Assembly: GCA_910574195.1 (NCBI GenBank)
Contig: CAJTBF010000023.1
Location: 1 to 35,783 of the forward strand
Length of the DNA: 35,783 nucleotides
Source of the DNA: Lachnospiraceae bacterium
GTDB taxonomy: Bacteria > Bacillota > Clostridia > Lachnospirales > Lachnospiraceae
Reading direction: 5' to 3'
A model generated the notes under the pieces. It saw only the letters and a list, made by a program, of their open reading frames with translations. It made no database searches and was not told where the DNA came from. Shown piece after piece: positions 863 through 35,779 of the stretch (the first letter of the stretch is position 1; the number at the start of each line of letters is the position of its first letter). The position numbers and the translations under genes are program-made.

Positions 863-2053
863 ATGTCTAATGTGAAACGAAAAGACAGTAAAAATCGCAA
901 TTTGCGTAATGGAGAGAGCCAGCGAAAAGACGGAAGATACGTTTATAAATATACCGATATATACGGAAAGCCACAATTTATCTATTCTTGGAAACTTGTA
1001 CCGACAGATAAGACACCTGCTGGAAAACGTGATGATATTTCATTGAGGGAAAAAGAAGCACAAATTAAAAAAGACCTTAACGACGGTATCGACATAGCAG
1101 GCGGTAAAATGACAGTCTGCCAGCTCTACGACAAGAAGAACAGCCAAAGAAAGAACATCAAAAGGGCTACTGAAAAGGGACGACAGTATCTTATGAACGC
1201 TCTGAAAAATGACCCGTTGGGCATGAGGGCGATTGATACTGTTAAGCAGTCAGACGCTAAAGAATGGGCTATCAGAATGAGCGAAAAAGGATATGCCTAT
1301 AAAACGATTGATAACTATAAGCGTTCCTTGAAAGCGTCATTTTACATGGCGATACAAGACGACTGTATCAGAAAGAACCCGTTTGAATTTAAGCTAAGTG
1401 ATGTTCTGGAAGATGATACGGAGCAGAAAGTTATCCTTACACCAGAGCAGGAAGAACGCCTGCTTGCCTTTATGGAAAAGGACAAGATTTACAGCAAGTA
1501 TTATGATGAGGTTGTGCTTCTGCTGGAAACGGGACTTCGTATTTCTGAATTTTGCGGATTGACGACGCATATTGATATGCAGAATAGAATACTCAATATA
1601 GACCACCAGTTATTGAAAGATAGCGAAATGGGCTACTATATTGAAACGCCAAAGACCAAAAACGGAAAACGGGAACTTCCATTGACAGAACGTGCTTATC
1701 AAGCAATCCAAAGAATACTAAAGAACAGAGGAAAAGCACAACCGCTGATTGTAGGTGGTTACAGCAATTTCCTATTCTTAAACCGTGAGGGCTTGCCTAA
1801 AGTTGCAGGAAACTATGAGGGCATGGTGCGAGGACTAATTAAGAAGTATAACAAGTATCACACGGATAAGTTACCGAACATCACACCACATTCATTCAGA
1901 CATACTTATTGTACGAATATGGCAAATAGAGGAATGAACCCAAACACCCTGCAATATCTCATGGGACACGCTAATATAACCATGACACTTGGTTATTACG
2001 CACACGGTACATTTCAATCTGCAAAAGCAGAACTGGAAAGGCTGGCTTGTTAA
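863..2053 (+). CDS. int: Tn916-family tyrosine integrase
   Basis: This is a 396-residue site-specific tyrosine recombinase that integrates and excises the conjugative element. The N-terminal ~65 residues match the arm-binding beta-sheet domain position in Tn916 Int, followed by a core-binding SAM-like domain (about 80-180) and the catalytic domain. Catalytic residues are visible: R226 in GLRISE, K264 in TPKTKNGK, H343 and R346 in HSFRHTY, H369 in LMGHANI, and nucleophile Y379 in LGYYAH. The start has an AAAGGAG site ten bases upstream. Length is close to the 405 residues of Tn916 Int. It appears intact. It is followed by direct repeats of the arm type at 2067-2087. Confidence 0.95.
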   Translation: MSNVKRKDSKNRNLRNGESQRKDGRYVYKYTDIYGKPQFIYSWKLVPTDKTPAGKRDDISLREKEAQIKKDLNDGIDIAGGKMTVCQLYDKKNSQRKNIKRATEKGRQYLMNALKNDPLGMRAIDTVKQSDAKEWAIRMSEKGYAYKTIDNYKRSLKASFYMAIQDDCIRKNPFEFKLSDVLEDDTEQKVILTPEQEERLLAFMEKDKIYSKYYDEVVLLLETGLRISEFCGLTTHIDMQNRILNIDHQLLKDSEMGYYIETPKTKNGKRELPLTERAYQAIQRILKNRGKAQPLIVGGYSNFLFLNREGLPKVAGNYEGMVRGLIKKYNKYHTDKLPNITPHSFRHTYCTNMANRGMNPNTLQYLMGHANITMTLGYYAHGTFQSAKAELERLAC

Positions 2054-4331: not shown

Positions 4332-5252
4332 TTATCTGGGTTCATACATCAGTGAAAATTGTCTGCGCACATAATCCAGATGACGGTCCAGAAGCGCGAT
4401 GGTATGTGCATCCGGATAGTTATCCGGTTTTCTGCATACTGTGTTCTTCATGATCCCCCGCCGTTTTAAAATTATTTTTTCCATAGCCACGAAGGACTCT
4501 ATATCTCTCTGCATCAGGTGAATATGGGGAAGATAACGGTTAAACAGATCAAACGCAAGCTCAGTCTCCCCTTTCTCAAACGCATCGTAAATCATACGAT
4601 ACGGACGGATCAGCGCCGCGCCCGGCATGACGGCGCACGCTCCCCTTGTCAGCGCTTCAAACATACATTCCCCACCGTTTCCGACGATGATATCATACTG
4701 GTCTCCCACAGCATTTCGAAGGGCTGTGATGGCCGGCCCCGTGGGGGAAGCCTCCAGTTTGATATAAAGTTCATGTTCCTGGCCTTTGCTGATCCTAGCA
4801 AATGTATCCGCCGCAATCGTCATTCCATTCAGCGCCGGAGCATACTGAATGATCATCGGAATATGGACGGCGCTGCTGATCTCCGCCAGATGCTGTGTCA
4901 CCATACTCTGGGACGGCGCCGCAAAACTGGGCGGCATAATATTCAACGCCTGCGCGCCTTTGCTTTCATAATAAAGAGCTTCCCGCAGCGCCAGAATCGT
5001 CGCGTGACTGCTCACTGTCGCAATCAGAGGAACTCTGCCCCTGTTGGCACGTACCGCCCGTATAAACAATTCTTTTCGTTCTTCCATTGTAAGTTTGTAA
5101 AACTCTGCTCCTGCCGCAAAAAGACACAAAGCATGCGCGCCGTCCTGAATGGCCATGTGCACCAGTTTTTCAAAGTTCTCGTAATCCACATACTGCCCGT
5201 TCTCCGTAAACGGCGTTGGTATCACCGGAATAATTCCACGTAAAAGCCCCAT
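4332..5252 (-). CDS. DHDPS/N-acetylneuraminate lyase-superfamily protein (operon-distal lyase)
   Basis: This 306-residue TIM-barrel protein belongs to the class I aldolase group that forms a Schiff base with a 2-keto acid. The start at 5252 (MGLLRGIIPVIPTPF) is preferred over an upstream ATG because AAGGGG lies eight bases before it. The expected Schiff-base lysine is K165 in YIKLEASPTG and the tyrosine is Y127 in IIQYAP. The usual G(S/T)TGE loop near residue 46 is replaced by FAAGAEF, which suggests a different substrate or a dehydratase-type reaction. The gene is last in the operon, four bases after the MBL hydrolase gene. I infer a role in cleaving or dehydrating a 2-keto-3-deoxy sugar acid. 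Confidence 0.82.
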   Translation of the reverse strand: MGLLRGIIPVIPTPFTENGQYVDYENFEKLVHMAIQDGAHALCLFAAGAEFYKLTMEERKELFIRAVRANRGRVPLIATVSSHATILALREALYYESKGAQALNIMPPSFAAPSQSMVTQHLAEISSAVHIPMIIQYAPALNGMTIAADTFARISKGQEHELYIKLEASPTGPAITALRNAVGDQYDIIVGNGGECMFEALTRGACAVMPGAALIRPYRMIYDAFEKGETELAFDLFNRYLPHIHLMQRDIESFVAMEKIILKRRGIMKNTVCRKPDNYPDAHTIALLDRHLDYVRRQFSLMYEPR

Positions 5253-5256
5253 CTGC

Positions 5257-5985
5257 TCACCCCTTTTCGAAAATTGAAAAATCATGTGACGGATAAATTC
5301 TTGCCGGTTTCAATCCCGCAAGCACTTTTAAGACTTCCTCACATTCTTTATGATTCACACACAATCCCACCGGAAGGCTCTCGCGCACATTTTTTTCCGT
5401 CATAACCACATCACCGGTTATCACTGCAAGTCCCTGCGCCGTATCCACCAGAACCATCTGGGAACCATATGTATGGCCGCCCGCATACCGCACCCGAATT
5501 CCCGGAAAAATCTCCTTCTCAGACTCTTCCCGTATCAGACGGATTCTCTCATTGTTCCTTTTCAAATCCTCCATCCATATCTCCGGATATTCGTCCGGAT
5601 ACCCCACCGCACGATCCCACTCCTTTTCGTGGCAGTAAAAAACAGCATTTGAAAAACTTCCTGCATTTCCGGCATGATCCCAGTGCAGATGAGTAAAAAT
5701 CACAGCCTCCACCTTTTCCCGGTCAATACCGGCCTCCGTAAGGATTTCCTCATAAGACTTTTTTCTCTCCACAAAAAGCGACAGCTGTTCCGCACATTCC
5801 CGCGCTTCCCCGAACCCCGTATCCACAACCACCTGCCGCTCCCCCTTTTCCAGAAGAAACAAAACCGACGGCACATAGTCTACAACAGAGGGATCACCGC
5901 CGCGATATCTGATATCATCACGTACCATCCCAAACTTTCCTGTCAAAACAGGAGTGACTGTCCAGTATCTGTTTTCTTTCCACAT
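5257..5985 (-). CDS. MBL-fold metallo-hydrolase, candidate sugar lactonase
   Basis: The 242-residue protein is a metallo-beta-lactamase-fold hydrolase of the lactonase-like (AiiA-related) branch. The two-metal site looks complete: HLHWDH at 99-104, a His in GGHTYGSQ, an Asp in TGDVVM and a His in YPSHDF. The ATG at 5985 follows GGAGGGG at good spacing; a TTG one codon upstream is not needed. Annotation pipelines may call it N-acyl homoserine lactonase, but its place between a dehydratase and a lyase gene in a sugar operon favours hydrolysis of a sugar lactone made by the co-encoded dehydrogenases. That role is inferred. The ribosome-binding site of the next gene overlaps its stop codon. Confidence 0.85.
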   Translation of the reverse strand: MWKENRYWTVTPVLTGKFGMVRDDIRYRGGDPSVVDYVPSVLFLLEKGERQVVVDTGFGEARECAEQLSLFVERKKSYEEILTEAGIDREKVEAVIFTHLHWDHAGNAGSFSNAVFYCHEKEWDRAVGYPDEYPEIWMEDLKRNNERIRLIREESEKEIFPGIRVRYAGGHTYGSQMVLVDTAQGLAVITGDVVMTEKNVRESLPVGLCVNHKECEEVLKVLAGLKPARIYPSHDFSIFEKG

Positions 5986-6105
5986 CAAAATCCCCTCCTT
6001 TCTGTCCCCAGTTTCTTCTCAGACAAAATATCTCCTTTGGGATGCCTCATAATCTGTGTTCCTGCCAAAACAGCGAATTTTGTATCTGAAAAAACATATC
6101 CATCC

Positions 6106-6210
6106 GGGCATCCCGTAATTCATGCCCTTCGGGCGGACGGACAGCACCGCTGTCCGATAAGGTATACCCATTCATGCATCCCGCATCAAACGCCCTTCGG
6201 CAGACGGACA
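6106..6210. repeat. Intergenic dispersed repeat, copy 1
   Basis: The stretch begins GGGCATCCCGTAATTCATG and later contains a 'cataccca-like ... CATCCCGCAT ... CTTCGG' pattern. The same order of blocks occurs in the same orientation at 15413-15501. It also holds short self-complementary parts such as GCCCTTCGGGC. It fills the gap of about 230 bases between the dehydratase and the MBL gene inside the operon. Confidence 0.5.
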
Positions 6211-6217
6211 CCTACAT

Positions 6218-7393
6218 CTAAAAAACAGGTACAAACTCCCCTTTATTTACCGCATCCACATCATTGTACGCATACTTTTGTAGTATCTCTTCCGTAAGTT
6301 CCACACCCAGTCCCGGAAGATCCTGAATCAATTCTACGTAACCGTCTTTGTATACGATCGGTTTGATCAGAAGCGCTTCCCTAAGCGGATTCAAAGTCTG
6401 GTCATGCTCCATCACAAACGCTTCCGGCTCGGATGCCATAAAGTGCATATTTGCCATAAACCCAACGCCGCTTCCGAAAATATGCGGCGCCATACGCATA
6501 TGGTGCGCCGATGCGATTGCCGCAATCCTCTTACATTCCGAGATTCCCCCGGAACGTGTCACATCCGGCTGAATCATATCTACGGCATGTTGTGTAATCA
6601 ATGGCGTAAATCCATATCTGGTAAACTCATTTTCTCCTGCAACAATCGGAATACTGGTATTTGCGGTCAGCCGTTTGAATCCCTGCACGTCGTCCGGATG
6701 AAGAGGTTCTTCCAACCAGAACAAATCACAGTCCTCCAATTTTTTACATACCCGGTACGCCGTATCATAGGTCCATGGAAAATTCGTATAACACTGCCCC
6801 GCATCTACAAAGAGCTTTGCCTTCGGTCCCACACGTCTCCGCAGCTCACGGATCAGTGCAATATCCTCGTCGGGATCCTCATTTCCGATGCGGACCTTAA
6901 ATCCAAAATATCCTCTGTCAAGATACCCTTGCGCTTCTTCCGCCAGATCATCTACTGATTTTGCCATACCGCCGCTGGCATACGCTTTGAATCTGGTACG
7001 GTATTTTCCTCCGATCAGGTCATATACCGGACGCTCCAGTACTTTTCCCATGATATCATAAAGAGCAATATCGATTCCACTGATCACCGTTGCGATCACG
7101 CCCCTGCGTCCATAATGCGCCGACTGAATATAAAGTTTCCGCCAGATCTTCTCAATATTAAAGGGGTCTTCCCCCAACAGCATTGGTTTAAACCGTGTCT
7201 CAATCATTTTTTCGACGGTTCTCGGAAGGTATGCAGACTCTCCAATCTCGCCGAGCCCTGTATACTTATCGTCAACCGTAATCCGTACCAGCACACAATT
7301 CCTTTGTAATGTGGCGCCGCCTGACCATTTCCATTTTTCATCCTGCTCATAACGGTAGCACAACAAAATTGTCTCTACATTCGTAATCTTCAT
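6218..7393 (-). CDS. Enolase-superfamily (mandelate racemase/muconate lactonizing) sugar-acid dehydratase
   Basis: The 391-residue protein has the full N-terminal capping domain and a TIM barrel of the mandelate racemase group. Visible active-site parts are K166-x-R168 on strand 2 (FKVRIG), metal ligands D197, E228/E229 in WLEEP and E254 in AGENEF, the His-Asp pair D277 and H304 (APHIFGSG), and E329. Members of this group abstract a proton next to a carboxylate; in sugar operons most are acid-sugar dehydratases yielding 2-keto-3-deoxy acids. K-x-R instead of K-x-K may bear on stereospecificity. Its start overlaps the stop of the upstream dehydrogenase gene (ATGA), which indicates translational coupling. 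The exact substrate cannot be told. Confidence 0.9.
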   Translation of the reverse strand: MKITNVETILLCYRYEQDEKWKWSGGATLQRNCVLVRITVDDKYTGLGEIGESAYLPRTVEKMIETRFKPMLLGEDPFNIEKIWRKLYIQSAHYGRRGVIATVISGIDIALYDIMGKVLERPVYDLIGGKYRTRFKAYASGGMAKSVDDLAEEAQGYLDRGYFGFKVRIGNEDPDEDIALIRELRRRVGPKAKLFVDAGQCYTNFPWTYDTAYRVCKKLEDCDLFWLEEPLHPDDVQGFKRLTANTSIPIVAGENEFTRYGFTPLITQHAVDMIQPDVTRSGGISECKRIAAIASAHHMRMAPHIFGSGVGFMANMHFMASEPEAFVMEHDQTLNPLREALLIKPIVYKDGYVELIQDLPGLGVELTEEILQKYAYNDVDAVNKGEFVPVF

Positions 7394-8445
7394 GCCGATT
7401 CCCCCGTCCCATAGTTTACTTTTACAATACTTCCTGTCCGCAAAGCCTCATATACGGCCCAGGTAATTTCCGTTGCTCTCGCGCCGTCCTCAATTCCGAT
7501 CATCGGTGTCTCGTCCAAACGGATACAACGCATGAAATATTCATCCAGACGTTTCACACCGCCTGCAATCGCAGAATGCCACATCACATCCTTATGTGTC
7601 ATTCCGTCCGTAAACATTCCCGGATTATTTTCAATCCCCTTCTCACTTTTTACAGTCAGATAATTCCGAAATTCATCCAAATAGATACATCCTGCATCCC
7701 CCACAATCTCAAACCGCTTATCCGTATCCGAATTGTCCGGCAGCCAGCCATTCATATCGATCGAAGCGATTCCGCCGCCGCTCAGATTCGCAATGCAGAA
7801 AAAACTGTCCTCAAAATCCATGTCAGGATGACAATGCGCCACCGCTCCGACAGAAACCACTTCCTGCCCCGTCATATATCTTACCGCATCCCACAGATGC
7901 ACGCTGGATTCCAGGATCAGGCCGCCGCCGCGTTTTCTGTCAAATACCCATTCTCCGTGCAGAGCGGCATGCCGCTTCATGGAAAAACGGAAATTTCCTC
8001 TCATAAACTGGATTTTTCCAAGAGAACCTTTTTTTATCTCACACATGGCTTCCTCTGTGGCAACAGAAAACCGCTGTGGAAAATCAACCATGATTTTTCC
8101 TTTGTATCCCCGGGAAAGACGTCGTACTTTCGAAAGTTCCTCCGCCGTTAAAACCAGCGGTTTTTCGCACAGGATATGTTTTCCGGTCAAAAGAGCGGCT
8201 TTCAATATCTCAAAATGATACATCTGAGGCGTCACAATATATACCGCATCTACCGCATCCTCTTCCAGAAGCAGATGATAGTCCGTAAAGGCCCTGGCGC
8301 CGTACTTTTCCGCAGTTTCCCCCGCCCTTTTTTCGTCCACATCACATACCGCCTCTATTATACACCCTTCCATCTCTGACAAATATTGTAAATGGAGCTG
8401 CCCCATCCATCCAAGTCCGATTAGCCCAATTCTTACTTTATCCAT
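7390..8445 (-). CDS. Gfo/Idh/MocA-family NAD(P)-dependent dehydrogenase (second of two)
   Basis: The 351-residue protein has an N-terminal Rossmann domain with GLIGLGWMG at about residues 8-16 and the EKP catalytic lysine motif in CEKPLV. The C-terminal beta-sheet domain carries the conserved GGGLILESSVHLWD segment with its His-x-x-Asp. I chose the ATG at 8445 (MDKVRIGLIG) because GAGGT lies before it and the longer frame adds 39 residues that do not resemble the family. It overlaps the upstream dehydrogenase by 13 bases and the downstream dehydratase by four. Such enzymes oxidise sugars, cyclitols or their acids at a ring carbon. The substrate is not determined. Confidence 0.9.
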   Translation of the reverse strand: MDKVRIGLIGLGWMGQLHLQYLSEMEGCIIEAVCDVDEKRAGETAEKYGARAFTDYHLLLEEDAVDAVYIVTPQMYHFEILKAALLTGKHILCEKPLVLTAEELSKVRRLSRGYKGKIMVDFPQRFSVATEEAMCEIKKGSLGKIQFMRGNFRFSMKRHAALHGEWVFDRKRGGGLILESSVHLWDAVRYMTGQEVVSVGAVAHCHPDMDFEDSFFCIANLSGGGIASIDMNGWLPDNSDTDKRFEIVGDAGCIYLDEFRNYLTVKSEKGIENNPGMFTDGMTHKDVMWHSAIAGGVKRLDEYFMRCIRLDETPMIGIEDGARATEITWAVYEALRTGSIVKVNYGTGESA

Positions 8446-9404
8446 TCGCTTACCTCCACAACCTTTTTTTCTTCGATTGCTTTCATCACCAGCCCGTGAA
8501 GACGACACACCCACTTTGCATCCTCCATGGTCGAAAGCGGCTGATTTCCCCGGCCGATACATTCCTCAAGGAACCATTTCATCTCCCGGTCAAACATTTC
8601 CTGATACAGACTCTGTTCGAATCCTTCTCCCACATTTTCTACAAAATCTCTTCTCGAAAAATGCATACTTCCCTGATTCCCAATGATCTTTATTTTGAAC
8701 GTCCAGGGATCCGAAGAATGATCTTCCGCCGCCCAGGATACAAAAATCTGCGCCACGGTACCTCTGTCATATTCCATCATGACAGAGATCTGCGGGCCTC
8801 CCGTCTGATTTGCCCCACCTTCTATATTGGTTCGAAAAGCGCTAAGGCGGATTGGTTTCCCCAGAAACGCCAGACTTAAATACAGTTGATGGCACAGGAC
8901 GTCCGTTTCAGGGCCTGTATATTTCACGGTCAGTTCCGGCGGCATATAGTAATTCTCCGCCAGATATAGATACCCCGGATTTCCCAGCCGTTTCTCTTCG
9001 AGCGTTTTCTTCATCCTGACCAGCTCCGCAAGATAGAGATAACTGTGTCCCGGCATACAGACCACCCCCTTTTCTTCCGCCGCCCATTTCATCTCTTTTA
9101 TCTCATCCACAGAAAAACTGACCGGTTTTTCTACCAGCACATGCTTTCCCGCTTTGATCGCTTCCATTGTATATCGGTAATGAAACTGCGGCGGTGTTAA
9201 AATGCACAATGCATCCACCAGCGAAGAAGCACAGATTTCTTCCACGTCCAGAACTTTTGCCCCGATCCGCTTCCCCAATTCTCCTGATTTGCGTCCGCCT
9301 GCTACCGCGGTAATTTCCACATCCGCACATTTACCTGCCGCAAGAATATGATTTTCCGCCACTCTTCCGCAGCCCACCAGTCCCATTCGAATTTTTCTTC
9401 CCAT
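8433..9404 (-). CDS. Gfo/Idh/MocA-family NAD(P)-dependent dehydrogenase (first of two)
   Basis: This 323-residue oxidoreductase has a Rossmann fingerprint MGLVGCGRVAENH at the N-terminus and the catalytic EKPVSF motif near residue 92. The second domain contains a D-x-x-x-H motif in ETDVLCHQLYL. The start is placed by an AGGAGGT site just upstream. Together with the next gene it forms a dehydrogenase pair with little sequence in common beyond the fold motifs, so the two likely act on different substrates or in opposite redox steps. It follows the transporter genes by 35 bases and belongs to the same transcript. Confidence 0.9.
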   Translation of the reverse strand: MGRKIRMGLVGCGRVAENHILAAGKCADVEITAVAGGRKSGELGKRIGAKVLDVEEICASSLVDALCILTPPQFHYRYTMEAIKAGKHVLVEKPVSFSVDEIKEMKWAAEEKGVVCMPGHSYLYLAELVRMKKTLEEKRLGNPGYLYLAENYYMPPELTVKYTGPETDVLCHQLYLSLAFLGKPIRLSAFRTNIEGGANQTGGPQISVMMEYDRGTVAQIFVSWAAEDHSSDPWTFKIKIIGNQGSMHFSRRDFVENVGEGFEQSLYQEMFDREMKWFLEECIGRGNQPLSTMEDAKWVCRLHGLVMKAIEEKKVVEVSEWIK

Positions 9405-9438
9405 GATCTACCTCCTATGCCAAATCTTTTTTATTCCG

Positions 9439-10281
9439 CTATTCCTTGATCGCACCCATCGTGAAGCCCTGTACCAGATATTTCTCCAAATAGGTGAATA
9501 ACGTCAATCCGGGAATACAGGCAAGCACAGAACCGGCCATGATCTGTCCCCAGTTTACACTTCCATGCTGCCCCTGCATCAATGCAATCCCTACGGTGAT
9601 CGTCCGCATCCCTTCCGTTCTTGCAAAGGTCAAAGCATACATATACTCCTGCCAGGAAAGAATAAACGCGAACATGGCTACCGTAACAATCCCGGGAGCG
9701 GCAAGGGGCATGATGATCTGAAACAGAATACGCAGTCTTCCGCAGCCGTCAATTCTGGCCGCCTCTTCCAGGGAAACCGGAATTGTATCAAAGTATCCTT
9801 TGATCATCCATGTACAGAACGGCATGGCAAATGTGGTATAGGCAATCACCATAGACAGATGTGTATCCAAAAGTCCCATTTTACTCATAATAAGATACAT
9901 AGGAATCAACAGAAGCATGGACGGAAACATCTGCACAACAATCAATGTCACGGAAAAAAAGGTCCTTCCGCGAAATCGGAAACGGGAGATTCCATAGCCG
10001 GCAAACATTGCGACAATCAGAGAAATTCCCATAGTGGCGAAGGATACCAGCAAAGAATTGACAAAATAGGTCTTAAAATATCCTCTGTTCCAGATTTCCC
10101 AATAATTTCGAAAACTGAACTTCCGCGGCAGCCATTTGGGAATTTCCTGAAACACCTCGTCCGCCTCTTTAAAAGAGGTAGAAATCATCCATAGAAACGG
10201 CAGGATCAATATCAGTGTCAAAACCAGAATCAATATCGTAAGTCCAACCCTGCTGCATTGTCTTTTTTGTGCTCTTGTCAT
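9439..10281 (-). CDS. Sugar ABC transporter permease, MalG type
   Basis: The 280-residue inner-membrane protein has six predicted transmembrane helices, the first at about 15-32. The EAA loop reads EAARIDGCGRLRILFQIIMP, the contact point for the transport ATPase. The ending GFTMGAIKE is typical for MalG/UgpE-type carbohydrate permeases (CUT1 class). It pairs with the MalF-type permease six bases upstream, and its ribosome-binding site overlaps that gene's end. No ATPase gene is present in the operon, so a shared MsmX/MsmK-type ATPase elsewhere in the genome probably energises transport. Confidence 0.93.
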   Translation of the reverse strand: MTRAQKRQCSRVGLTILILVLTLILILPFLWMISTSFKEADEVFQEIPKWLPRKFSFRNYWEIWNRGYFKTYFVNSLLVSFATMGISLIVAMFAGYGISRFRFRGRTFFSVTLIVVQMFPSMLLLIPMYLIMSKMGLLDTHLSMVIAYTTFAMPFCTWMIKGYFDTIPVSLEEAARIDGCGRLRILFQIIMPLAAPGIVTVAMFAFILSWQEYMYALTFARTEGMRTITVGIALMQGQHGSVNWGQIMAGSVLACIPGLTLFTYLEKYLVQGFTMGAIKE

Positions 10282-10287
10282 TTTCTC

Positions 10288-11163
10288 TCACTCCTTTAAT
10301 AGTTTCCTGACATAAATAATGCAGGGAATAATCAGTACGATCATCATCATAACTGCAGCAGCAGACGCATAACTTGTCTGGAATGTCTGCATGAACAGAC
10401 GGTAAATATAAACAGGAAGCGACAGGGTTGCTTCTCCCGGTCCTCCTTTTGTCACCACCTGAATAATCTCCAATTGATTAAAGTTCCATATGGATGTAAG
10501 AATCGCCGTAATCAGCATGATGTTCTGCAGCATCGGTATGGTAATGAAACGGAAACACTGACTTTCTTTCGCCCCGTCCACCTTTGCAGCTTCGTAAAGA
10601 TCAGAAGGAATTGCCTGAATTCCCGCCAGCAGTGTGATCGCGACAAACGGAATGCTTTTCCAGATAATCACCATAACAACTGAGGCCGCCGCCAGCTTCT
10701 CATCAGACAGCCAGGCCAGATTATGATTGATCAGACCAATCTGCTTTAACAGATAATTCATCATTCCGAAAGATTCATTCAGAAACCATTTCCAGATAAT
10801 TCCGGCAATGGCATTGGGAATCACCCAGGGGATCAGCACCAGACAGCGAAACAACTTTTTACAATAAATATCTTTGTTTAACATCACTGCGAACAAAAGT
10901 CCCAAAATCATTTCAAAAATAAGAATTACAATGGTCCAGACCACAGATCTTCCCAGTGCATCCAGAAACATGGAATCTTTCAGAAGTTTTCCGTAATTCT
11001 CAAATCCCACAAATTCCTTTGCAATCGGCCGAATCAGATTTTCATTATAAAAACTATTGACCAGTCCGGAAAAAACCGGATAGATCAATACCACAAGAAT
11101 CAGTATTGCACAGGGAAGCAGAAATAAATAGGGAGCCATTCCTGTTTTTAATCTTCTTTTCAT
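10288..11163 (-). CDS. Sugar ABC transporter permease, MalF type
   Basis: This 291-residue protein has six transmembrane segments, the first at about 11-33, and the EAA-loop EAAKVDGAKESQCFRFITIP that docks the ATPase. It matches the MalF/UgpA/LacF-type permeases of the CUT1 class, which move mono- to oligosaccharides or their acids. The start has GGAGG seven bases upstream. The gene lies 172 bases after the binding-protein gene, separated by a hairpin followed by T residues (11301-11326) that may lower expression of the permeases relative to the binding protein. Confidence 0.93.
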   Translation of the reverse strand: MKRRLKTGMAPYLFLLPCAILILVVLIYPVFSGLVNSFYNENLIRPIAKEFVGFENYGKLLKDSMFLDALGRSVVWTIVILIFEMILGLLFAVMLNKDIYCKKLFRCLVLIPWVIPNAIAGIIWKWFLNESFGMMNYLLKQIGLINHNLAWLSDEKLAAASVVMVIIWKSIPFVAITLLAGIQAIPSDLYEAAKVDGAKESQCFRFITIPMLQNIMLITAILTSIWNFNQLEIIQVVTKGGPGEATLSLPVYIYRLFMQTFQTSYASAAAVMMMIVLIIPCIIYVRKLLKE

Positions 11164-11192
11164 CTTTACTCCTCCAAATCATGCAGGCTTTC

Positions 11193-11285
11193 CACATACG
11201 ATGGTATTCAGAAAACATGCCGCTGATAGTCTTTGCACATACGATAAACAGAAAACATACCGCCGGCAGCCTTTTTGCATACGTA
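11193..11285. repeat. Imperfect tandem repeats of about 43 bases
   Basis: A unit beginning CACATACGAT and containing AGAAAACAT and CCGC occurs at 11193-11235 and 11236-11277, with a partial third start CATACG at 11278. A related segment lies at 19100-19135. The repeats lie in the leader of the permease gene, downstream of the attenuator-like hairpin. Confidence 0.55.
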
Positions 11286-11300
11286 TGTATTTAAAAATCC

Positions 11301-11326
11301 GGGGGCTGTCTAAATGACAGCGCCCC
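11301..11326 (-). terminator. Attenuator-like hairpin after the binding-protein gene
   Basis: On the minus strand GGGGCG-CTGTC pairs with GACAG-CCCC around an ATTTA loop. It is followed by GGATTTTTAAAT. The position, ten bases after the binding-protein stop and inside the operon, fits a partial terminator or a 3' end that stabilises the binding-protein message. Confidence 0.65.
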
Positions 11327-11335
11327 GACTTACAT

Positions 11336-12667
11336 CTATTCACCATGCATTTCTTTCAACTTTTCATCCAGTGTACCCAGACCTTCTTCCACCGATACAC
11401 TTCCCTGAATCATTTGCTGTACCGTAGAATTTCCATACATACTGGTCAAAGACTGCCACTGTGGATCCAACGGCGGAATCATACATCCGTCCACCTCATC
11501 CAGGAAAGGCTGAAGCAGATCATTGTAATTTTCTCTGGCATATTCAATAAATTCTTCGGAATAAAGCATTCCGCCTGCCGCATTACAGAACGCGCCCGCA
11601 ATCGTGAGACCCTCTACATCGCTCGGTGTATTGTAGAAGTATTCCAGGAATTTCCATGCCGCATCCTTTTTCTCGGATGCTTCCAGAATATTAAAGGTAT
11701 TGGGATAACCTCTGTACGCAGCCTGCACCGGTCCGTCAAAAAGCACTGCGGTTCCCCATTTGCCATCCAGATCCGGACCTTTTTCCGCCACAGAACCGGT
11801 TACCCATGCGCCGTTGTGCATCATCGCAACTTCCCCCGCGACAAACGCATTGGTCACTGCTTCCCAGTCATAATCTACCACACTTTTCGGACTTACCTCA
11901 TACTTCTGTACCAGGTCTACCATAAGCTGTGTTCCTTCTTTTGCCGCATCATCAGAAAGCTTTGAGGACCATGCACCGTCTTCATATACGGAAATATCCG
12001 CGCCGCACATCTGCATAAAGTTTACCCAGTAATCGGATGCATTCTCTGCCTGTACCGGCCATCCATATCCATACTGATCAATCTTGCCGTCTCCGTCCGT
12101 ATCTTTTGTAAGCGCCTTTGCACACTCCAAAAATTCATCCCATGTTTTCGGTGGCTTTTCGGGATCCAATCCTGCCTTTTCAAACAGGTCTTTGCGATAA
12201 AACAGCGCCCAGTTACACCCCTCCTGCGGAAGCCCGTCCACCTTACCGTCCTCTGTGGTGATCATCGCTTTCGCACTTGGCAGAAAACTGTCAATCAGTT
12301 CCGAAGGAACCAGATCTGTCAAATCTGCCAGTGCACCGATCCCTCTGTATTCCGCTAACATAGAAGTATTACACATGATCAGATCCGGCGCTTCGCCGCT
12401 GACAATGGACGTCATAATCTGCCCCGGAGCATCCGTCCAACTGCTTCGTGTCTCTACAATTTTAATATCCGGATTCTGTTCCTGAAAATCGGCAATGGCC
12501 TGTTCCAGAATCTCCAACTGCGCCGGAACCCATGCCGTGTGCAGAAACTGCAGTTCCACAGTCTCTCCTGTCGTTCCCTCCTCTGTCTTCTCCGACTGCG
12601 ACGCGCAGCCGGAAATACCGGCGAGCATTGCCACACATAGAAGCATGCTTAACACCTTTTTCTTCAT
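11336..12667 (-). CDS. Extracellular sugar-binding lipoprotein (ABC transporter, CUT1/family 1)
   Basis: The 443-residue precursor has a basic N-terminus, a hydrophobic segment and a lipobox LAGISGC with the lipidated cysteine at position 21. It will be anchored on the outer face of the membrane. The mature part follows the pattern of family 1 solute-binding proteins. Examples are an early FQEQNPDIKIVETRSSW segment, GLPQEGCNWALFYRKDLFEK, and PKTWDEFLECAKALTKDTDG with an acidic loop. The start follows GGAGG. It feeds substrate to the two permeases downstream. The ligand is unknown; given the enzymes in the operon a sugar acid, lactone or glycoside is plausible. Confidence 0.93.
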   Translation of the reverse strand: MKKKVLSMLLCVAMLAGISGCASQSEKTEEGTTGETVELQFLHTAWVPAQLEILEQAIADFQEQNPDIKIVETRSSWTDAPGQIMTSIVSGEAPDLIMCNTSMLAEYRGIGALADLTDLVPSELIDSFLPSAKAMITTEDGKVDGLPQEGCNWALFYRKDLFEKAGLDPEKPPKTWDEFLECAKALTKDTDGDGKIDQYGYGWPVQAENASDYWVNFMQMCGADISVYEDGAWSSKLSDDAAKEGTQLMVDLVQKYEVSPKSVVDYDWEAVTNAFVAGEVAMMHNGAWVTGSVAEKGPDLDGKWGTAVLFDGPVQAAYRGYPNTFNILEASEKKDAAWKFLEYFYNTPSDVEGLTIAGAFCNAAGGMLYSEEFIEYARENYNDLLQPFLDEVDGCMIPPLDPQWQSLTSMYGNSTVQQMIQGSVSVEEGLGTLDEKLKEMHGE

Positions 12668-12737
12668 TGATTCTTTCCTCCTTCATTTTTTTATGATGTT
12701 GTTTTTCCTTCTGTTCCTCCCTCAATTTGCTTTTCTG

Positions 12738-13655
12738 TCAGACAAAGGATCTGATCCTCTGTACCAGCTCCACAGCCTGTGCAATCCAGGGAGAACAAAA
12801 TTCTACATTTAAGTTGTGCAGACTTCTCTGTGGTTTTCCCACGTCCACACCGGTAATCCCGGATAAAATCCGGTAGTTTTCCGGAAATGCAACCGCATCC
12901 AGATGACGTACCAACTGGATAATCTCCATCTGCATCCGGGATGCCTTCTGCATCTCATTTTTTCGATATGCCTGCCAGATTCCCGCCAGCACTTCGTCCA
13001 GTATCCAGCATAACGCAGACATACAACCGGAAATCCCAAGCGTCAAACCGGGCAAAAATGCGGAATCCTGTCCTGTAAATACTGCGAAATCCGGTCTCAT
13101 CTCCTCTACGATTCCCATAATTTTGGATAAATACATCATGTCCCCACTGCTGTCCTTCATCCCAATGATATTGGGGAGTCTTAGTAGCTTGTCCATATAA
13201 CGCAAAGGAATCTGCGGAGAACAAAATGGAATATTATAAAGCAGAATCTGCATTCCCTTCGGTGCATTTTCCGATATATTCTCGTAAAAACTTACAATAT
13301 CCTCCGGACTTTGCGGATAATAATAGGGTGGACAGATAATCGCATATGTATAACCCAGTCCCTTCATATAGTAGAGAAGATTCAATACTTTTCTCTCCGT
13401 AGCCGCACTGGCCCCTCCGATCAGAACTTTATGCTTCCCGCATTCTTCCATTCCGATACGAAGAAGCTTTCTCTGCTGTTCCACATCCAGATATACAAAT
13501 TCACCTGTGGAACCACAGAGAAGTAATCCTGTCGTCTGCGTACCGGCACAATAACGAAGCTCTCGCCGCAGAGTCTGCTCTTCCAGATGTCCTTCCCGGT
13601 CAAAGGGAGTAAGGAGCACTCCATATGTTCCTTTTTCTATTTTTGTTCGACTCAA
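12738..13655 (-). CDS. DHDPS/N-acetylneuraminate lyase-superfamily aldolase (operon-proximal)
   Basis: This 305-residue class I aldolase is the first gene of the operon. Its motifs are canonical: GSTGE at 48-52, the catalytic tyrosine Y140 in LLYNIP, and Schiff-base lysine K167 in GMKDSSG. I place the start at a TTG (13655), because AGGAGG lies six bases before it; the ATG at 13688 would put the ribosome-binding site inside the gene and would begin within an operator palindrome. Family members cleave or condense pyruvate with an aldehyde. With a dehydratase in the same operon, cleavage of a 2-keto-3-deoxy sugar acid to pyruvate and an aldehyde is the likely job. Confidence 0.88.
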   Translation of the reverse strand: MSRTKIEKGTYGVLLTPFDREGHLEEQTLRRELRYCAGTQTTGLLLCGSTGEFVYLDVEQQRKLLRIGMEECGKHKVLIGGASAATERKVLNLLYYMKGLGYTYAIICPPYYYPQSPEDIVSFYENISENAPKGMQILLYNIPFCSPQIPLRYMDKLLRLPNIIGMKDSSGDMMYLSKIMGIVEEMRPDFAVFTGQDSAFLPGLTLGISGCMSALCWILDEVLAGIWQAYRKNEMQKASRMQMEIIQLVRHLDAVAFPENYRILSGITGVDVGKPQRSLHNLNVEFCSPWIAQAVELVQRIRSFV

Positions 13656-13682
13656 TTCCTCCCTCCTTTCGTTCTTATATAT

Positions 13683-13705
13683 GAACATATTCTATATATA
13701 TGTTC
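13683..13705. promoter_or_regulatory. Operator palindrome for the catabolic operon
   Basis: GAACATAT at 13683-13690 and ATATGTTC at 13698-13705 form perfect eight-base arms around a seven-base spacer. The site lies five to thirty bases after the predicted start of the operon transcript. It is the natural candidate site for the IclR-type regulator encoded divergently. Confidence 0.7.
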
Positions 13706-13717
13706 TTTGTTTTTATA

Positions 13718-13746
13718 ATAATACCACAGTGTACTCAGGCTGTCAA
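13718..13746 (-). promoter_or_regulatory. Promoter of the sugar catabolic operon
   Basis: On the minus strand a perfect TTGACA (13741-13746) is followed after 17 bases by TATTAT (13718-13723). Transcription would start near 13711, just upstream of the operator palindrome. Confidence 0.75.
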
Positions 13747-13873: not shown

Positions 13874-13999
13874 ATATATATATGAATTTTCTTCATGTAT
13901 ATAAACTTATTTGCCGATGAATCTGCAAAGGACAGAAAAAAAGAATCCTTATTGGCAAAGACCAGAAAAATCACGTATGAATCAGAGAGGAACTTCACT

Positions 14000-14764
14000 A
14001 TGGAACAAAAAAATCACCGACTTTTACAATGTGCTTTGGAAATTATGAAATATATATCGGAACAGCCCAAAGGCGTCTCCTTTAAAGAAATCTGTACCGT
14101 CATTGATCTGCCCAAAAGTTCCACCCACAATCTTGTACAGACCATGTGCAACATGGGTTTTTTACAGAAAAAAGAAAATTACAACGAATATCGGATCGGA
14201 TTAAAATGCTTTGAGGTTGGAAATGCCTATCTGTCCACCAACCCGTTTTATTCCATCGCCAGAGATATTGTGGAAAACGTTTCCGCCAGATGTAATCAAA
14301 CCTCACATTTTGCTATTTTAAATGAACATGACACTATCTACCTTTATAAATTTGACAGCAATCAGCCGCTGCGGATCGCTTCCCATACCGGCAAACGGAT
14401 TCCTGCCCATGCGACAGCCATAGGAAAAGCTCTTTTATCCGGTTTTACCAGAGAAGAATTACTGGAATTATATCGGAATTATGAGTTAAAACCCATGACA
14501 TCACATACCATCACCTCTTTTGAAGAGCTTGCTTCTCAGGTAGAAAATGTACGCAAAACACAGACCGCTTACGAGTCCGAGGAATCCTCCCCCTATATCC
14601 GCTGTATTGCCGTCCCTATACATAATCCGACCGGACATGTAATCGCCGCGATTTCTATATCCTTTCCGGTTTATCAGACGGACTTAAACCCGGAAGCTTT
14701 CCATGCCATTCTCCTGGATGCCAAAAAGCAACTTGAGGCTGCCCTGCTGACTCTGAATAATTGA
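14000..14764 (+). CDS. IclR-family transcriptional regulator
   Basis: The protein is 254 residues long from the ATG at 14000, the usual size of the family, with AGAGAGG nine bases upstream. The N-terminal winged helix shows GVSFKEICTVIDLPKSSTHN and then LVQTMCNMGFL. The C-terminal effector domain contains HFAILNEHDTIYLYKF, IPAHATAIGKALLSGF and an IAVPIHNPTGHVIAAISIS segment. It is transcribed away from the nine-gene operon and is expected to control it, most likely through the palindrome at 13683-13705. The effector is probably the substrate or a pathway intermediate, as usual for IclR regulators of sugar-acid and aromatic pathways. Confidence 0.93.
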   Translation: MEQKNHRLLQCALEIMKYISEQPKGVSFKEICTVIDLPKSSTHNLVQTMCNMGFLQKKENYNEYRIGLKCFEVGNAYLSTNPFYSIARDIVENVSARCNQTSHFAILNEHDTIYLYKFDSNQPLRIASHTGKRIPAHATAIGKALLSGFTREELLELYRNYELKPMTSHTITSFEELASQVENVRKTQTAYESEESSPYIRCIAVPIHNPTGHVIAAISISFPVYQTDLNPEAFHAILLDAKKQLEAALLTLNN

Positions 14765-34021: not shown

Positions 34022-34158
34022 ACCCTGAAATGTATATTTTCTGTGAATCTGATTAAAAAGTCGGATCTTTCCGAAGTTAGTTGAAATAAAGCTTTTATCA
34101 AATGGTAAAACATGGTATAATAAGCATGAATTTTAAAGCGTTTGCGGGAGCTGATACC

Positions 34159-34599
34159 ATGGATGAATTTATCAAGGAGCTTGATCCAAATCTGGATTAT
34201 CTGGAGCATAAAATAATTGGGAATGAAGTCATTATTTATGCAGCCTCAAACAGAAAAATATGCAGATGCCCTTATTGCGGCTCTGAATCGGCGCGAATAC
34301 ATAGCCGTTACGAAAAAAGTTTTCAGGATCTTCCAATCATGGGCAAAAAAACAAAAGTCGTTATTGAAAACAGAAAATTCTTCTGCGACAATCCAGACTG
34401 TGGATTCACTACTTTTGCAGAGCGTTTCGACTTCCTGGCACAGAAAGGGAAAAAGACAAAACGCCTGATTGAAAAAATCGTGGATGTTTCCCTGAATACA
34501 AGCTCCACCACTGCTTCAAGGACGCTGAAAGACGGGATTGCGGATGTTGGCAAAAGCACCATCTGCAGTCTCTTAAAAAAAAGATATGCCAGTTTCTGA
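34159..34599 (+). CDS. ISL3-family transposase, N-terminal part (zinc finger)
   Basis: This frame encodes 146 residues from the ATG at 34159, which follows a GGGAG site. It begins MDEFIKELDPNLDYLEHKII. The ISL3 zinc-binding domain has CPYCG near residue 39 and CDNPDC near residue 76. It is followed by the helix-turn-helix region up to GKSTICSLLKK. At the run of eight A (34575-34582) the frame diverges from the rest of the transposase and stops 14 codons further. The family protein continues in the other frame (34586-35779). The N-terminal portion binds the element ends. Confidence 0.9.
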   Translation: MDEFIKELDPNLDYLEHKIIGNEVIIYAASNRKICRCPYCGSESARIHSRYEKSFQDLPIMGKKTKVVIENRKFFCDNPDCGFTTFAERFDFLAQKGKKTKRLIEKIVDVSLNTSSTTASRTLKDGIADVGKSTICSLLKKRYASF

Positions 34600-35779
34600 G
34601 AAAGAAGCCGTTACAAAAGTCTGCATTGACGATTTCGCATTTCGGAAAAGAAAAACCTATGGGACTGTCATGGTAGACATTGACACGCACCGGATCATTG
34701 ACCTGCTGGCGTCCCGGGAAAGCGCGGACGTAGCGGAATGGCTGAAAAGCTATCCGAATCTTGAAGTTGTATCCAGGGATGGCTCTGTTTCCTATAAAAG
34801 CGCCATTGAACAGGCTGGAAGCCATCTGCAGCAGGTCAGTGACCGTTTTCACCTGATGAAGGGGCTTACGGATGCGGCAAAGAAATTTCTGTCACGTCTT
34901 CTGGCGGCAAATTTTATTCTCCCAACGGAAGCATCCCATTATGACGGAAAACCTACGGGGGATTACTGGGATAAACCTGTCAAAGAAGACGCGCCTGCCG
35001 CTGAGCACAACGCAAATGTTAAAAAGAAAATGAAGACGGTGGAACAAGTACGGGAATTCGGGAAACAGGGATTGAACAAAAGTGAGATTGCAAGGATTGT
35101 CGGAATAAACAGGGTGACGGTTGCAAAATACCTGAAGGATGATTTTAACCCTTCCAGCGCTTATTACCATACGACGATCCCCAGTAAAATAAAGCCCTAT
35201 TCTCAGGAAATAAAAAATATGCTCAGTGAGGGGAAAACTTTCAAGCAGATCAGCGCGGTGATTCGGGAAAGGGGATATGATGGCGCGGATGGAACAATCC
35301 GTATGTTTGCCACAAGGGAACGGCGGCTCATGAAGGAAGCTGCCGAACAGGGAGGAAGTGGAGAAAAGATCGAACGGAAGTGGCTGGTCAGCCTTTTGTA
35401 CCACCCTGTTGATGAGGTTCGTTCCCTCAGCCAGGATCAACTGGACAGGATCATAGAAGAATATCCCATCATAGGGCGTGTTTATGATGCTGTGGCAGGA
35501 TTCAAAAGGGCACTGTTTGGCAAAAAAGAGGCCGAGCTTGATAAATGGGCAGAAGAAACCGAAGCTCTTGAGATAGATGAACTGGAGAGCTTTATAAACG
35601 GAATCAAAAGAGATATTACCGCAGTAAAAAACGCCATTCGTCTTGATTACAATAATGGACTGGCAGAAGGAAGCGTGAACAAGCTGAAAGTTGTCAAAAG
35701 GATCATGTATGGCCGCAACAGTTTTGAGTTGCTGAAAGGGAAACTGTTGCGGCTTGAATTAAAACGCAAAATCAACTAA
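34586..35779 (+). CDS. ISL3-family transposase, catalytic part
   Basis: The 397 codons encode the DDE catalytic region of ISL3 transposases. They start in KVCIDDFAFRKRKTYGTVMV, with the second aspartate in VVSRDGSVSY and the glutamate near the end in NNGLAEGSVNKLKVVKRIMYG. An inserted helix-turn-helix stretch (LNKSEIARIVGINRVTVAKY) lies in the middle. The ATG at 34586 lacks a good ribosome-binding site. The part should be read as a fusion with the upstream frame, needing a +1 shift or loss of one A in the run of eight. The stop codon lies inside the right terminal repeat. Confidence 0.9.
   Translation: MPVSEKEAVTKVCIDDFAFRKRKTYGTVMVDIDTHRIIDLLASRESADVAEWLKSYPNLEVVSRDGSVSYKSAIEQAGSHLQQVSDRFHLMKGLTDAAKKFLSRLLAANFILPTEASHYDGKPTGDYWDKPVKEDAPAAEHNANVKKKMKTVEQVREFGKQGLNKSEIARIVGINRVTVAKYLKDDFNPSSAYYHTTIPSKIKPYSQEIKNMLSEGKTFKQISAVIRERGYDGADGTIRMFATRERRLMKEAAEQGGSGEKIERKWLVSLLYHPVDEVRSLSQDQLDRIIEEYPIIGRVYDAVAGFKRALFGKKEAELDKWAEETEALEIDELESFINGIKRDITAVKNAIRLDYNNGLAEGSVNKLKVVKRIMYGRNSFELLKGKLLRLELKRKIN

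What the first reader, a model, noticed from the sequence alone, without database searches (positions are those of the whole stretch)
4332..13655. A complete oxidative (non-phosphorylating) sugar catabolic pathway in one operon, substrate unknown
Seen: nine minus-strand genes with short gaps or overlaps encode a binding protein, two permeases, two Gfo/Idh/MocA dehydrogenases, an MBL hydrolase, a mandelate-racemase-type dehydratase and two DHDPS-type lyases. Known: sugar dehydrogenase, lactonase, acid-sugar dehydratase and 2-keto-3-deoxy acid aldolase are the four steps of Weimberg/DeLey-Doudoroff-type routes. Inferred: the operon is such a route with an MBL-fold lactonase in place of SMP-30 or Pgl, unusual for an anaerobic gut Firmicute.
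Basis: partly seen in the sequence, partly recalled or inferred. Interest (0 to 1): 0.8.

Follow-up and report, generated by a model that had tools for sequence, protein, structure and literature searches.

The report
Bacterial sugar-oxidation operon, substrate unknown
A rare set of nine genes appears to let some anaerobic bacteria import a sugar or sugar acid, oxidise it and break it down without phosphorylating it, with two different candidate enzymes for the last step; which sugar it serves still has to be tested.

Summary
The nine-gene minus-strand operon is real, with a promoter-like site, a palindrome shared with related operons, and a divergent IclR-type regulator. It recurs, whole or in part, in nine other loci, among them Lachnospiraceae and Treponema (MR/MLE 76-90% identical in the six closest), but is rare (1 of 12 genomes of the genus). 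Gene content supports an oxidative route: a Gfo or SDR dehydrogenase and an MBL protein occur together in 8 of 10 loci; neither was seen in the other 2. One correction: only the first DHDPS gene is aldolase-like. The last belongs to a clade with Gln in place of the aldolase Tyr and Glu two after the Schiff-base Lys (14 of 14; 0 of 11 other DHDPS proteins), as in 2-keto-3-deoxy-L-arabinonate dehydratase, though a second catalytic Glu is not conserved. The operon thus probably has two exits from one 2-keto-3-deoxy acid: aldol cleavage and dehydration. It is not complete: no transporter ATPase gene in it, and no ketoglutarate-semialdehyde dehydrogenase recognised in the genome. All reactions are inferred; the substrate is unknown. 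A new variant of a known kind of pathway.

The parts
13895..14764 (+). IclR-family regulator, divergent from the operon
   Evidence: Pfam IclR_C and HTH_IclR; best NCBIfam KdgR 154 bits, cut-off 275 not reached; an IclR-like gene adjoins or ends the operon in L009, L010, L012, L014 and L071
13873..13886 (.). second operator-like site (2 mismatches to TTCATATATATGAA)
13718..13746 (-). sigma-70-like promoter TTGACA-17-TATTAT with TG before the second hexamer; best score of the scanned region (11 of 12)
   Evidence: the number of promoter-like sites in the region is not above chance (15 found, 18.8 expected)
13671..13686 (.). palindromic operator-like site GTTCATATATAAGAAC just before the first gene
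   Evidence: 1 mismatch to the perfect palindrome of L010; 3 places in the whole genome at up to 2 mismatches, the other two inside ORFs
12738..13655 (-). DHDPS/NAL-family protein, aldolase-like (Tyr and Lys present, GSTGE motif); inferred 2-keto-3-deoxy acid aldolase
   Evidence: PF00701; Tyr/Lys/Ser pattern; best PDB hits a DHDPS, KDG/KDPG aldolase 4uxd and NAL
11336..12667 (-). ABC sugar-binding protein (SBP_bac_1)
   Evidence: PDB hits are sugar-binding proteins of ABC transporters
10288..11163 (-). ABC permease 1
9439..10281 (-). ABC permease 2
8433..9404 (-). Gfo/Idh/MocA dehydrogenase 1 (EKP motif conserved in 6 of 6)
7390..8445 (-). Gfo/Idh/MocA dehydrogenase 2 (EKP motif conserved in 4 of 4); start placed at MDKVRIG, 39 codons inside the ORF, by comparison with L010, L012 and L013
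6218..7393 (-). MR/MLE (enolase superfamily) protein, inferred acid-sugar dehydratase; K166-x-R168, D197, E228, E254, D277, H304, E329 invariant in 8 of 8 aligned sequences
   Evidence: roles of these residues recalled
5257..5988 (-). MBL-fold hydrolase of the AHL-lactonase group, inferred aldonolactonase; HxHxDH and further ligand motifs conserved in 6 of 6
4332..5252 (-). DHDPS-family protein of the Gln/Glu clade (Q147, K176, E178 in ORF numbering), relative of L-2-keto-3-deoxyarabonate dehydratase; inferred dehydratase of the 2-keto-3-deoxy acid

Best explanation
A locally regulated operon for uptake and oxidative, non-phosphorylating breakdown of a sugar and/or its sugar acid. An ABC importer (its ATPase not in the operon) brings the compound in; the Gfo/Idh/MocA dehydrogenases oxidise the aldose to an aldonolactone; the MBL enzyme opens the lactone; the MR/MLE enzyme removes water to give a 2-keto-3-deoxy acid. 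That acid then leaves by one of two exits: aldol cleavage to pyruvate plus a short aldehyde (DHDPS protein 12738-13655), or dehydration through a Schiff base by the Gln/Glu-clade DHDPS protein (4332-5252). The IclR protein probably acts at the palindrome between promoter and first gene. Shown here: gene content, motifs, sequence and fold relationships, conservation, operator-like motif. Inferred: every reaction, the order of steps, and regulation by IclR.
For: Families. MR/MLE: residues of the mandelate racemase subgroup's active site (roles recalled) invariant in 8 of 8; nearest NCBIfam model arabinonate dehydratase, 242 bits, cut-off 650 not reached. MBL: the first 12 fold matches are AHL lactonases, and 38 of the 50 rows shown are lactonases, many of them chains of one entry; the other 12 are methyl parathion hydrolase, organophosphate hydrolases and uncharacterised hydrolases (some labels). 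In 10 loci a dehydrogenase and an MBL protein are both present in 8 (Gfo in 7, SDR in L067); neither was seen in L014 and L072. Exits: MR/MLE occurs with the Gln/Glu DHDPS alone (L014), with the aldolase-like DHDPS alone (L013, L071) or with both (window, L009, L010, L067, L072); L011 and L012 cannot be scored fully. Gln/Lys/Glu signature 14 of 14 against 0 of 11. In Clostridia the Gln/Glu protein also sits next to IlvD/Edd-type dehydratases in 4 of 8 further loci; the two of these that I scanned pass a broad dihydroxy-acid dehydratase subfamily and rank L-arabinonate dehydratase next, below its cut-off. Operator.
Against: No protein reaches a curated NCBIfam equivalog cut-off in the rows shown. 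The genome's ALDH-family genes do not reach the cut-off of a ketoglutarate-semialdehyde or 2,5-dioxovalerate dehydrogenase model, so the dehydration exit ends in a product of unknown fate. Glu200 of the characterised dehydratase is not conserved. The fold match of the last gene hardly discriminates: other DHDPS and NAL structures reach TM 0.81-0.87 too. L072 has neither MBL nor dehydrogenase although it keeps both exits. The 10 loci are related, so the co-occurrence counts are few independent events. The two other MBL matches found in 391 class genomes lie in unrelated gene surroundings.
Confidence: 0.68

Rival explanations
1. The operon primarily takes up a ready-made sugar acid (for example an aldonate or a glycosylated aldonate); the dehydrogenases and the MBL enzyme are add-ons that deal with side substrates or lactones.
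For: L014 has only regulator, importer, MR/MLE and the Gln/Glu DHDPS protein; in L072 neither Gfo/SDR nor MBL was seen.
Against: 8 of 10 loci carry both add-ons. Beside the regulator gene of L014 lies a gene that looks by eye like a 2-hydroxyacid dehydrogenase.
Confidence: 0.3
2. The MR/MLE enzyme is a cycloisomerase or epimerase rather than a dehydratase, as in galactarolactone or 3,6-anhydrogalactonate cycloisomerase, and the route runs through an aldarate or anhydro sugar acid.
For: 4ggb/4hpn (recalled to be a galactarolactone cycloisomerase; the PDB name is uncharacterised) and 3,6-anhydro-L-galactonate cycloisomerase 5xd7 are among the PDB matches (202.9 and 139.3 bits).
Against: The scores do not single them out (3sjn 218.8, galactonate dehydratase 5olc 211.2, same call); NCBIfam ranks arabinonate and galactonate dehydratases first.
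Confidence: 0.15
3. The Gfo enzymes act at C3 of a glycoside, as in disaccharide or C-glycoside 3-oxidation, and the rest degrades the released keto sugar.
For: Gfo matches include DgpA structures and glycoside 3-dehydrogenase models, at low score.
Against: I recognised no partner of those systems in the operon (from the families; partners recalled); an SDR takes the place of the Gfo enzymes in L067; the model matches are far below cut-off.
Confidence: 0.08
4. The last gene is an aldolase or another Schiff-base enzyme, not a dehydratase, so that the two DHDPS proteins serve two substrates.
For: Glu200, the second base of the dehydratase, is missing in 14 of 14; in L065 and L066 the clade member sits beside KDG-kinase-like and Eda-like genes, which could process the 2-keto-3-deoxy acid by themselves.
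Against: The aldolase Tyr is replaced in 14 of 14; best sequence and fold match is the dehydratase.
Confidence: 0.3

Closest known systems
Weimberg-type (Route II) pentose pathway with L-2-keto-3-deoxyarabonate dehydratase of the DHDPS family (Azospirillum; PMC9795676, passages seen)
   Same: order of reaction types; last gene shares Gln143, Lys171 and Glu173 and has this enzyme as best sequence and fold match
   Different: MR/MLE in place of an IlvD/Edd dehydratase, MBL lactonase, no ketoglutarate-semialdehyde dehydrogenase recognised, Glu200 not conserved, 26% identity
Dahms / De Ley-Doudoroff route (2-keto-3-deoxy acid aldolase)
   Same: candidates for dehydrogenase, lactonase, MR/MLE-type dehydratase and DHDPS-type aldolase are all present
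   Different: a second DHDPS protein of a dehydratase clade in the same operon; lactonase of the MBL fold
Archaeal arabinonate dehydratase and galactonate dehydratases of the MR/MLE superfamily
   Same: superfamily, active-site residues, best NCBIfam ranks
   Different: below the curated cut-offs
AHL lactonases / 4-pyridoxolactonase (MBL fold)
   Same: fold and metal-binding motifs
   Different: conserved N-terminal GMVRDDI motif (not compared with the known lactonases), sugar-operon context, below the curated cut-offs

Membership tests
L-2-keto-3-deoxyarabonate dehydratase (DHDPS family) | DHDPS/NAL barrel, best fold match among solved structures | tested here: met
   PF00701; AlphaFold model pLDDT 82.6; the first eight PDB rows are this enzyme, TM 0.87, but other DHDPS/NAL structures follow closely
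L-2-keto-3-deoxyarabonate dehydratase (DHDPS family) | Schiff-base Lys, Tyr replaced by Gln143, Glu173 | tested here: met
   14 of 14 clade members, 0 of 11 other DHDPS proteins for Gln and Glu; positions checked against 3fkk; roles from passages of PMC9795676
L-2-keto-3-deoxyarabonate dehydratase (DHDPS family) | Glu200, base for the C5 proton | tested here: not met
   the column holds Gly, Ala or Asn in 14 of 14; gap placement there is uncertain, and a Glu two residues on is present in 4 of the 5 closest sequences
L-2-keto-3-deoxyarabonate dehydratase (DHDPS family) | activity on L-2-keto-3-deoxyarabonate | not testable with these tools
   needs an enzyme assay
Weimberg pathway | ketoglutarate-semialdehyde dehydrogenase | tested here: not met
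   none in the operon; the genome's PF00171 matches fall in four genes, best matched by MdlD (below cut-off), PRK15398, AdhE and ProA models; the ketoglutarate-semialdehyde model gives the first 135.7 bits, cut-off 770. Assembly 98% complete
Dahms / De Ley-Doudoroff pathway | 2-keto-3-deoxy acid aldolase with Tyr and Lys | tested here: met
   residues only: 12738-13655 has LYNIP, GMKDSSGD and GSTGEF; substrate and activity not shown
MR/MLE acid-sugar dehydratases | metal ligands, K-x-K/R, Asp-His pair | tested here: met
   invariant in 8 of 8; assignment of roles recalled
MR/MLE acid-sugar dehydratases | curated cut-off of a named dehydratase | tested here: not met
   best 241.6 bits, cut-off 650
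MBL-fold lactonases | HxHxDH and further metal ligands, lactonase fold | tested here: met
CUT1-type ABC importer | binding protein, two permeases, ATPase | tested here: inconclusive
   binding protein and two permeases present; no ATPase among the operon's nine genes; the genome was not searched for it

The most novel reading that the evidence does not exclude
A single anaerobic operon with two Schiff-base exits serves two sugars of one stereochemical series (for example D-galactose and L-arabinose, which agree at C2 to C4; recalled): shared dehydrogenase, MBL lactonase and MR/MLE dehydratase, aldolase exit for the C6 acid and Gln/Glu-clade exit for the C5 acid. The Gln/Glu clade would be a recurrent, unnamed branch of the DHDPS family that lacks Glu200 and so runs a variant of the dehydratase reaction. 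LacZ-type beta-galactosidase genes near two of the operons (L013, L071) fit galactosides as the source.
Probability: 0.15. Interest if true: 0.62.

Novelty: new variant of a known kind. Interest (0 to 1): 0.45.

Why it matters
Oxidative non-phosphorylating sugar routes have been worked out chiefly in aerobic bacteria and archaea (recalled; the passages seen of PMC9795676 and PMC6336799 deal with such organisms). A compact, regulated version shared by Lachnospiraceae and Treponema would add a route by which anaerobes use a sugar or sugar acid, would give a probable role to an MBL lactonase subgroup, and would turn a clade of DHDPS-family proteins without assigned function here into testable sugar-acid enzymes.

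Tried and rejected
Plasmid collection, megablast of the operon: no match. Biosynthetic DapA for the two DHDPS genes: rejected, the genome has a DapA elsewhere that passes the equivalog cut-off (341 bits, cut-off 206), the operon's two do not (90.5 and 113.3 bits). Substrate from homology: not possible; MR/MLE, Gfo and binding-protein matches are spread over many functions at similar scores. MBL context in other genomes: 2 further genomes of 391 with a match at E up to 1e-30, in unrelated surroundings. Regulon search: no second upstream site of the operator in the genome at up to 2 mismatches. Papers: in searches I saw no description of this operon, judging by titles and starts of abstracts; searches returned no paper. 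Passages were seen of PMC9795676, PMC6336799 and PMC7374468; no paper was read whole, and the library holds open-licence papers only. RNA families at gathering score and tRNAs: none in the window. Relatives in the Treponema family were not searched.
Full report
What is there. The window is contig C23 of an unnamed 3.96 Mb genome, 98% complete. Between 4332 and 13655, nine genes lie on the minus strand. In the order of transcription they are: an aldolase-like DHDPS protein, an ABC sugar-binding protein, two permeases, two Gfo/Idh/MocA dehydrogenases, an MR/MLE enzyme, an MBL-fold hydrolase and a second DHDPS protein. An IclR-type regulator lies divergently upstream. No protein reaches the cut-off of a named NCBIfam equivalog in the rows shown, so every function below is inferred.

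Control region. The first gene most likely starts at a TTG at 13655, behind AAAGGAGGGAGG. The best promoter-like site of the region, TTGACA-17-TATTAT, ends at 13718; the number of promoter-like sites as such is not above chance in that scan (15 found, 18.8 expected). Between this promoter and the start lies GTTCATATATAAGAAC. Within the window the motif TTCATATATATGAA with up to 2 mismatches occurs 4 times against 0.27 expected, three of them at this control region. The perfect palindrome stands at the same place in L010. Sites with up to 2 mismatches stand before the operon in L009 and L014 and at the 5' end of the first gene's frame in L071; L012 has one only at 3 mismatches, and L013 has none in the 250 nt available. 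In the whole genome the 16-base palindrome with up to 2 mismatches occurs at 3 places, the other two inside ORFs; the backwards control gave 1 place. The regulator therefore looks dedicated to this operon. That it represses is an inference from the site's place.

Distribution. A scan of genome contigs with the MR/MLE protein, which reaches close relatives only, gave 31 loci: six at 76-90% identity and 25 at 29-36%. The six are Blautia glucerasea, Diplocloster modestus, Clostridium sp. C105KSO13, a Lachnospiraceae MAG and two Treponema MAGs. In whole-genome samples the close form is rare: 1 of 12 genomes of the genus (the own one), 6 of 299 of the family at E up to 1e-60, of which only one besides the own is close, at 77% (by its coordinates the same MAG as L013), and 3 of 398 of the phylum at E up to 1e-105, the own included. 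The Treponema MR/MLE proteins are 76-77% identical to the window's, whereas threonyl-tRNA synthetase (labelled by eye) from the L014 contig is 48% identical to that of the window's genome. With the trees, in which the two Treponema rows fall among the Firmicute rows, this points to transfer between phyla. The trees are small, some forks are weakly supported, and the direction is not settled. That some of the MAGs come from termite gut is my reading of isolate names (recalled, not tested).

Gene content of ten loci (window, L009-L014, L067, L071, L072). Dehydrogenase plus MBL protein: both in 8; neither seen in 2 (L014, L072). Beside the regulator gene of L014 lies a gene that looks by eye like a 2-hydroxyacid dehydrogenase; I did not count it. 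In L067 an SDR stands where the Gfo enzymes stand elsewhere; its NCBIfam match passes a broad 'glucose 1-dehydrogenase' subfamily cut-off. L072 has an amidohydrolase of PF04909, a family recalled to include sugar lactonases. Gln/Glu DHDPS protein: present in 7 (window, L009, L010, L011, L014, L067, L072), not found in 2 (L013, L071), not scorable in L012, where the contig ends. Aldolase-like DHDPS: present in 7 (window, L009, L010, L013, L067, L071, L072), absent in 2 (L012, L014), not scorable in L011, where the upstream part is broken. The window's order of the two Gfo genes is the reverse of that in L010, L012, L013 and L071; L009 and L011 lack the second Gfo gene. L067 has no transporter genes beside it, and L067 and L072 are distant (MR/MLE 41% identical). 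These loci are related, so the counts are few independent events.

The two DHDPS proteins. In an alignment of 25 proteins the last gene's clade has Gln at the place of the aldolase Tyr, the Schiff-base Lys, and Glu two residues on in 14 of 14; none of the 11 other DHDPS proteins has that Gln or that Glu (8 aldolase-like ones beside MR/MLE genes and 3 further paralogues of the own genome). These are Gln143, Lys171 and Glu173 of the Azospirillum dehydratase (positions checked), for which a review states that a tyrosine has been replaced by Gln143 and that Glu173 is not conserved among other members of the family (PMC9795676, passages). The same review names Glu200 as a second base; that column holds no Glu in 14 of 14, though gaps make the place uncertain. 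Sequence search and fold search (model pLDDT 82.6) both rank this dehydratase first, at 26-27% identity; in the fold search other DHDPS and NAL structures follow closely (TM 0.81-0.87). I therefore say that it works like this dehydratase in part, and do not file it as one. Of the 8 further loci found with this protein in 391 class genomes at E up to 1e-30, 4 have it next to an IlvD/Edd-type dehydratase and an SDR, and 3 next to an MR/MLE gene; in one the contig is too short. The labels of the IlvD/Edd and SDR genes rest on NCBIfam for L060, L061, L065 and L067 and on the eye for the rest.

The lactonase. The MBL protein keeps the metal-binding motifs in 6 of 6 aligned sequences. The first 12 fold matches are AHL lactonases; 4-pyridoxolactonase, methyl parathion hydrolase and some uncharacterised hydrolases follow. 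Together with the co-occurrence with dehydrogenases this supports an aldonolactonase; I know of no assay.

What is missing. There is no ATPase gene in the operon (the genome was not searched for one). The genome's PF00171 matches fall in four genes, best matched by the models MdlD (benzaldehyde dehydrogenase, below its cut-off), PRK15398, AdhE and ProA; the first scores 136 bits against a ketoglutarate-semialdehyde dehydrogenase cut-off of 770. If the dehydration exit runs, its product may be reduced or used in another way. This speaks against a plain Weimberg pathway.

Substrate. It cannot be read from homology. Hints are LacZ-type beta-galactosidase genes near L013 (incomplete, with a regulator gene between) and L071 (both below the equivalog cut-offs), a GH1 beta-glucosidase near L072, and a DUF5107/TPR protein after L009. 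L014 suggests that at least there the imported compound is already an acid.

Verdict. An ordinary kind of pathway in an unusual host and make-up: a new variant of a known kind, worth enzyme assays mainly for the Gln/Glu DHDPS clade and the MBL enzyme.

Noticed in passing
window 6040-6217 (-), between MR/MLE and MBL genes: An interspersed repeat: 49 matches in the genome including itself, 44 at E below 1e-6, core of about 70 nt, up to 97% identical, on many contigs. As RNA a 138-nt part folds a little better than shuffles (z -2.0, 3 of 200 shuffles as good). In L009, L010, L011 and L013 the frames of the two neighbouring genes leave little or no room between them.
   Followed up: partly
L060, L061, L063, L064: A recurring small gene cluster in Clostridia: IlvD/Edd-type dehydratase, Gln/Glu DHDPS protein and SDR, with an Eda-type aldolase in L061 (some labels by eye). 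Perhaps another sugar-acid route.
   Followed up: partly
L065, L066: MR/MLE and Gln/Glu DHDPS genes beside KDG-kinase-like and Eda-like genes; L065 also has an MBL-superfamily protein that recalls UlaG (Lactamase_B_2/3) and genes that look by eye like a TRAP transporter.
   Followed up: partly
L011 5161-7293: One ORF joins a part that looks by eye like a sigma-54 activator in frame to residues 180-443 of the binding protein, without any N; a chimeric assembly or a recombination.
   Followed up: partly
L071 7520-9043: A plus-strand ORF of 508 aa, transposase-like by eye, sits inside the operon between the Gfo and MR/MLE genes.
   Followed up: no
L012 3246-4637 and 6312-7766: Two binding-protein genes in one operon, each about 60% identical to the window's.
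   Followed up: no
window 863-2053 and 34102-35779: A tyrosine-integrase-like gene near the left end and transposase-like ORFs at the right end of the contig (labels recalled from the translations, not searched).
   Followed up: no
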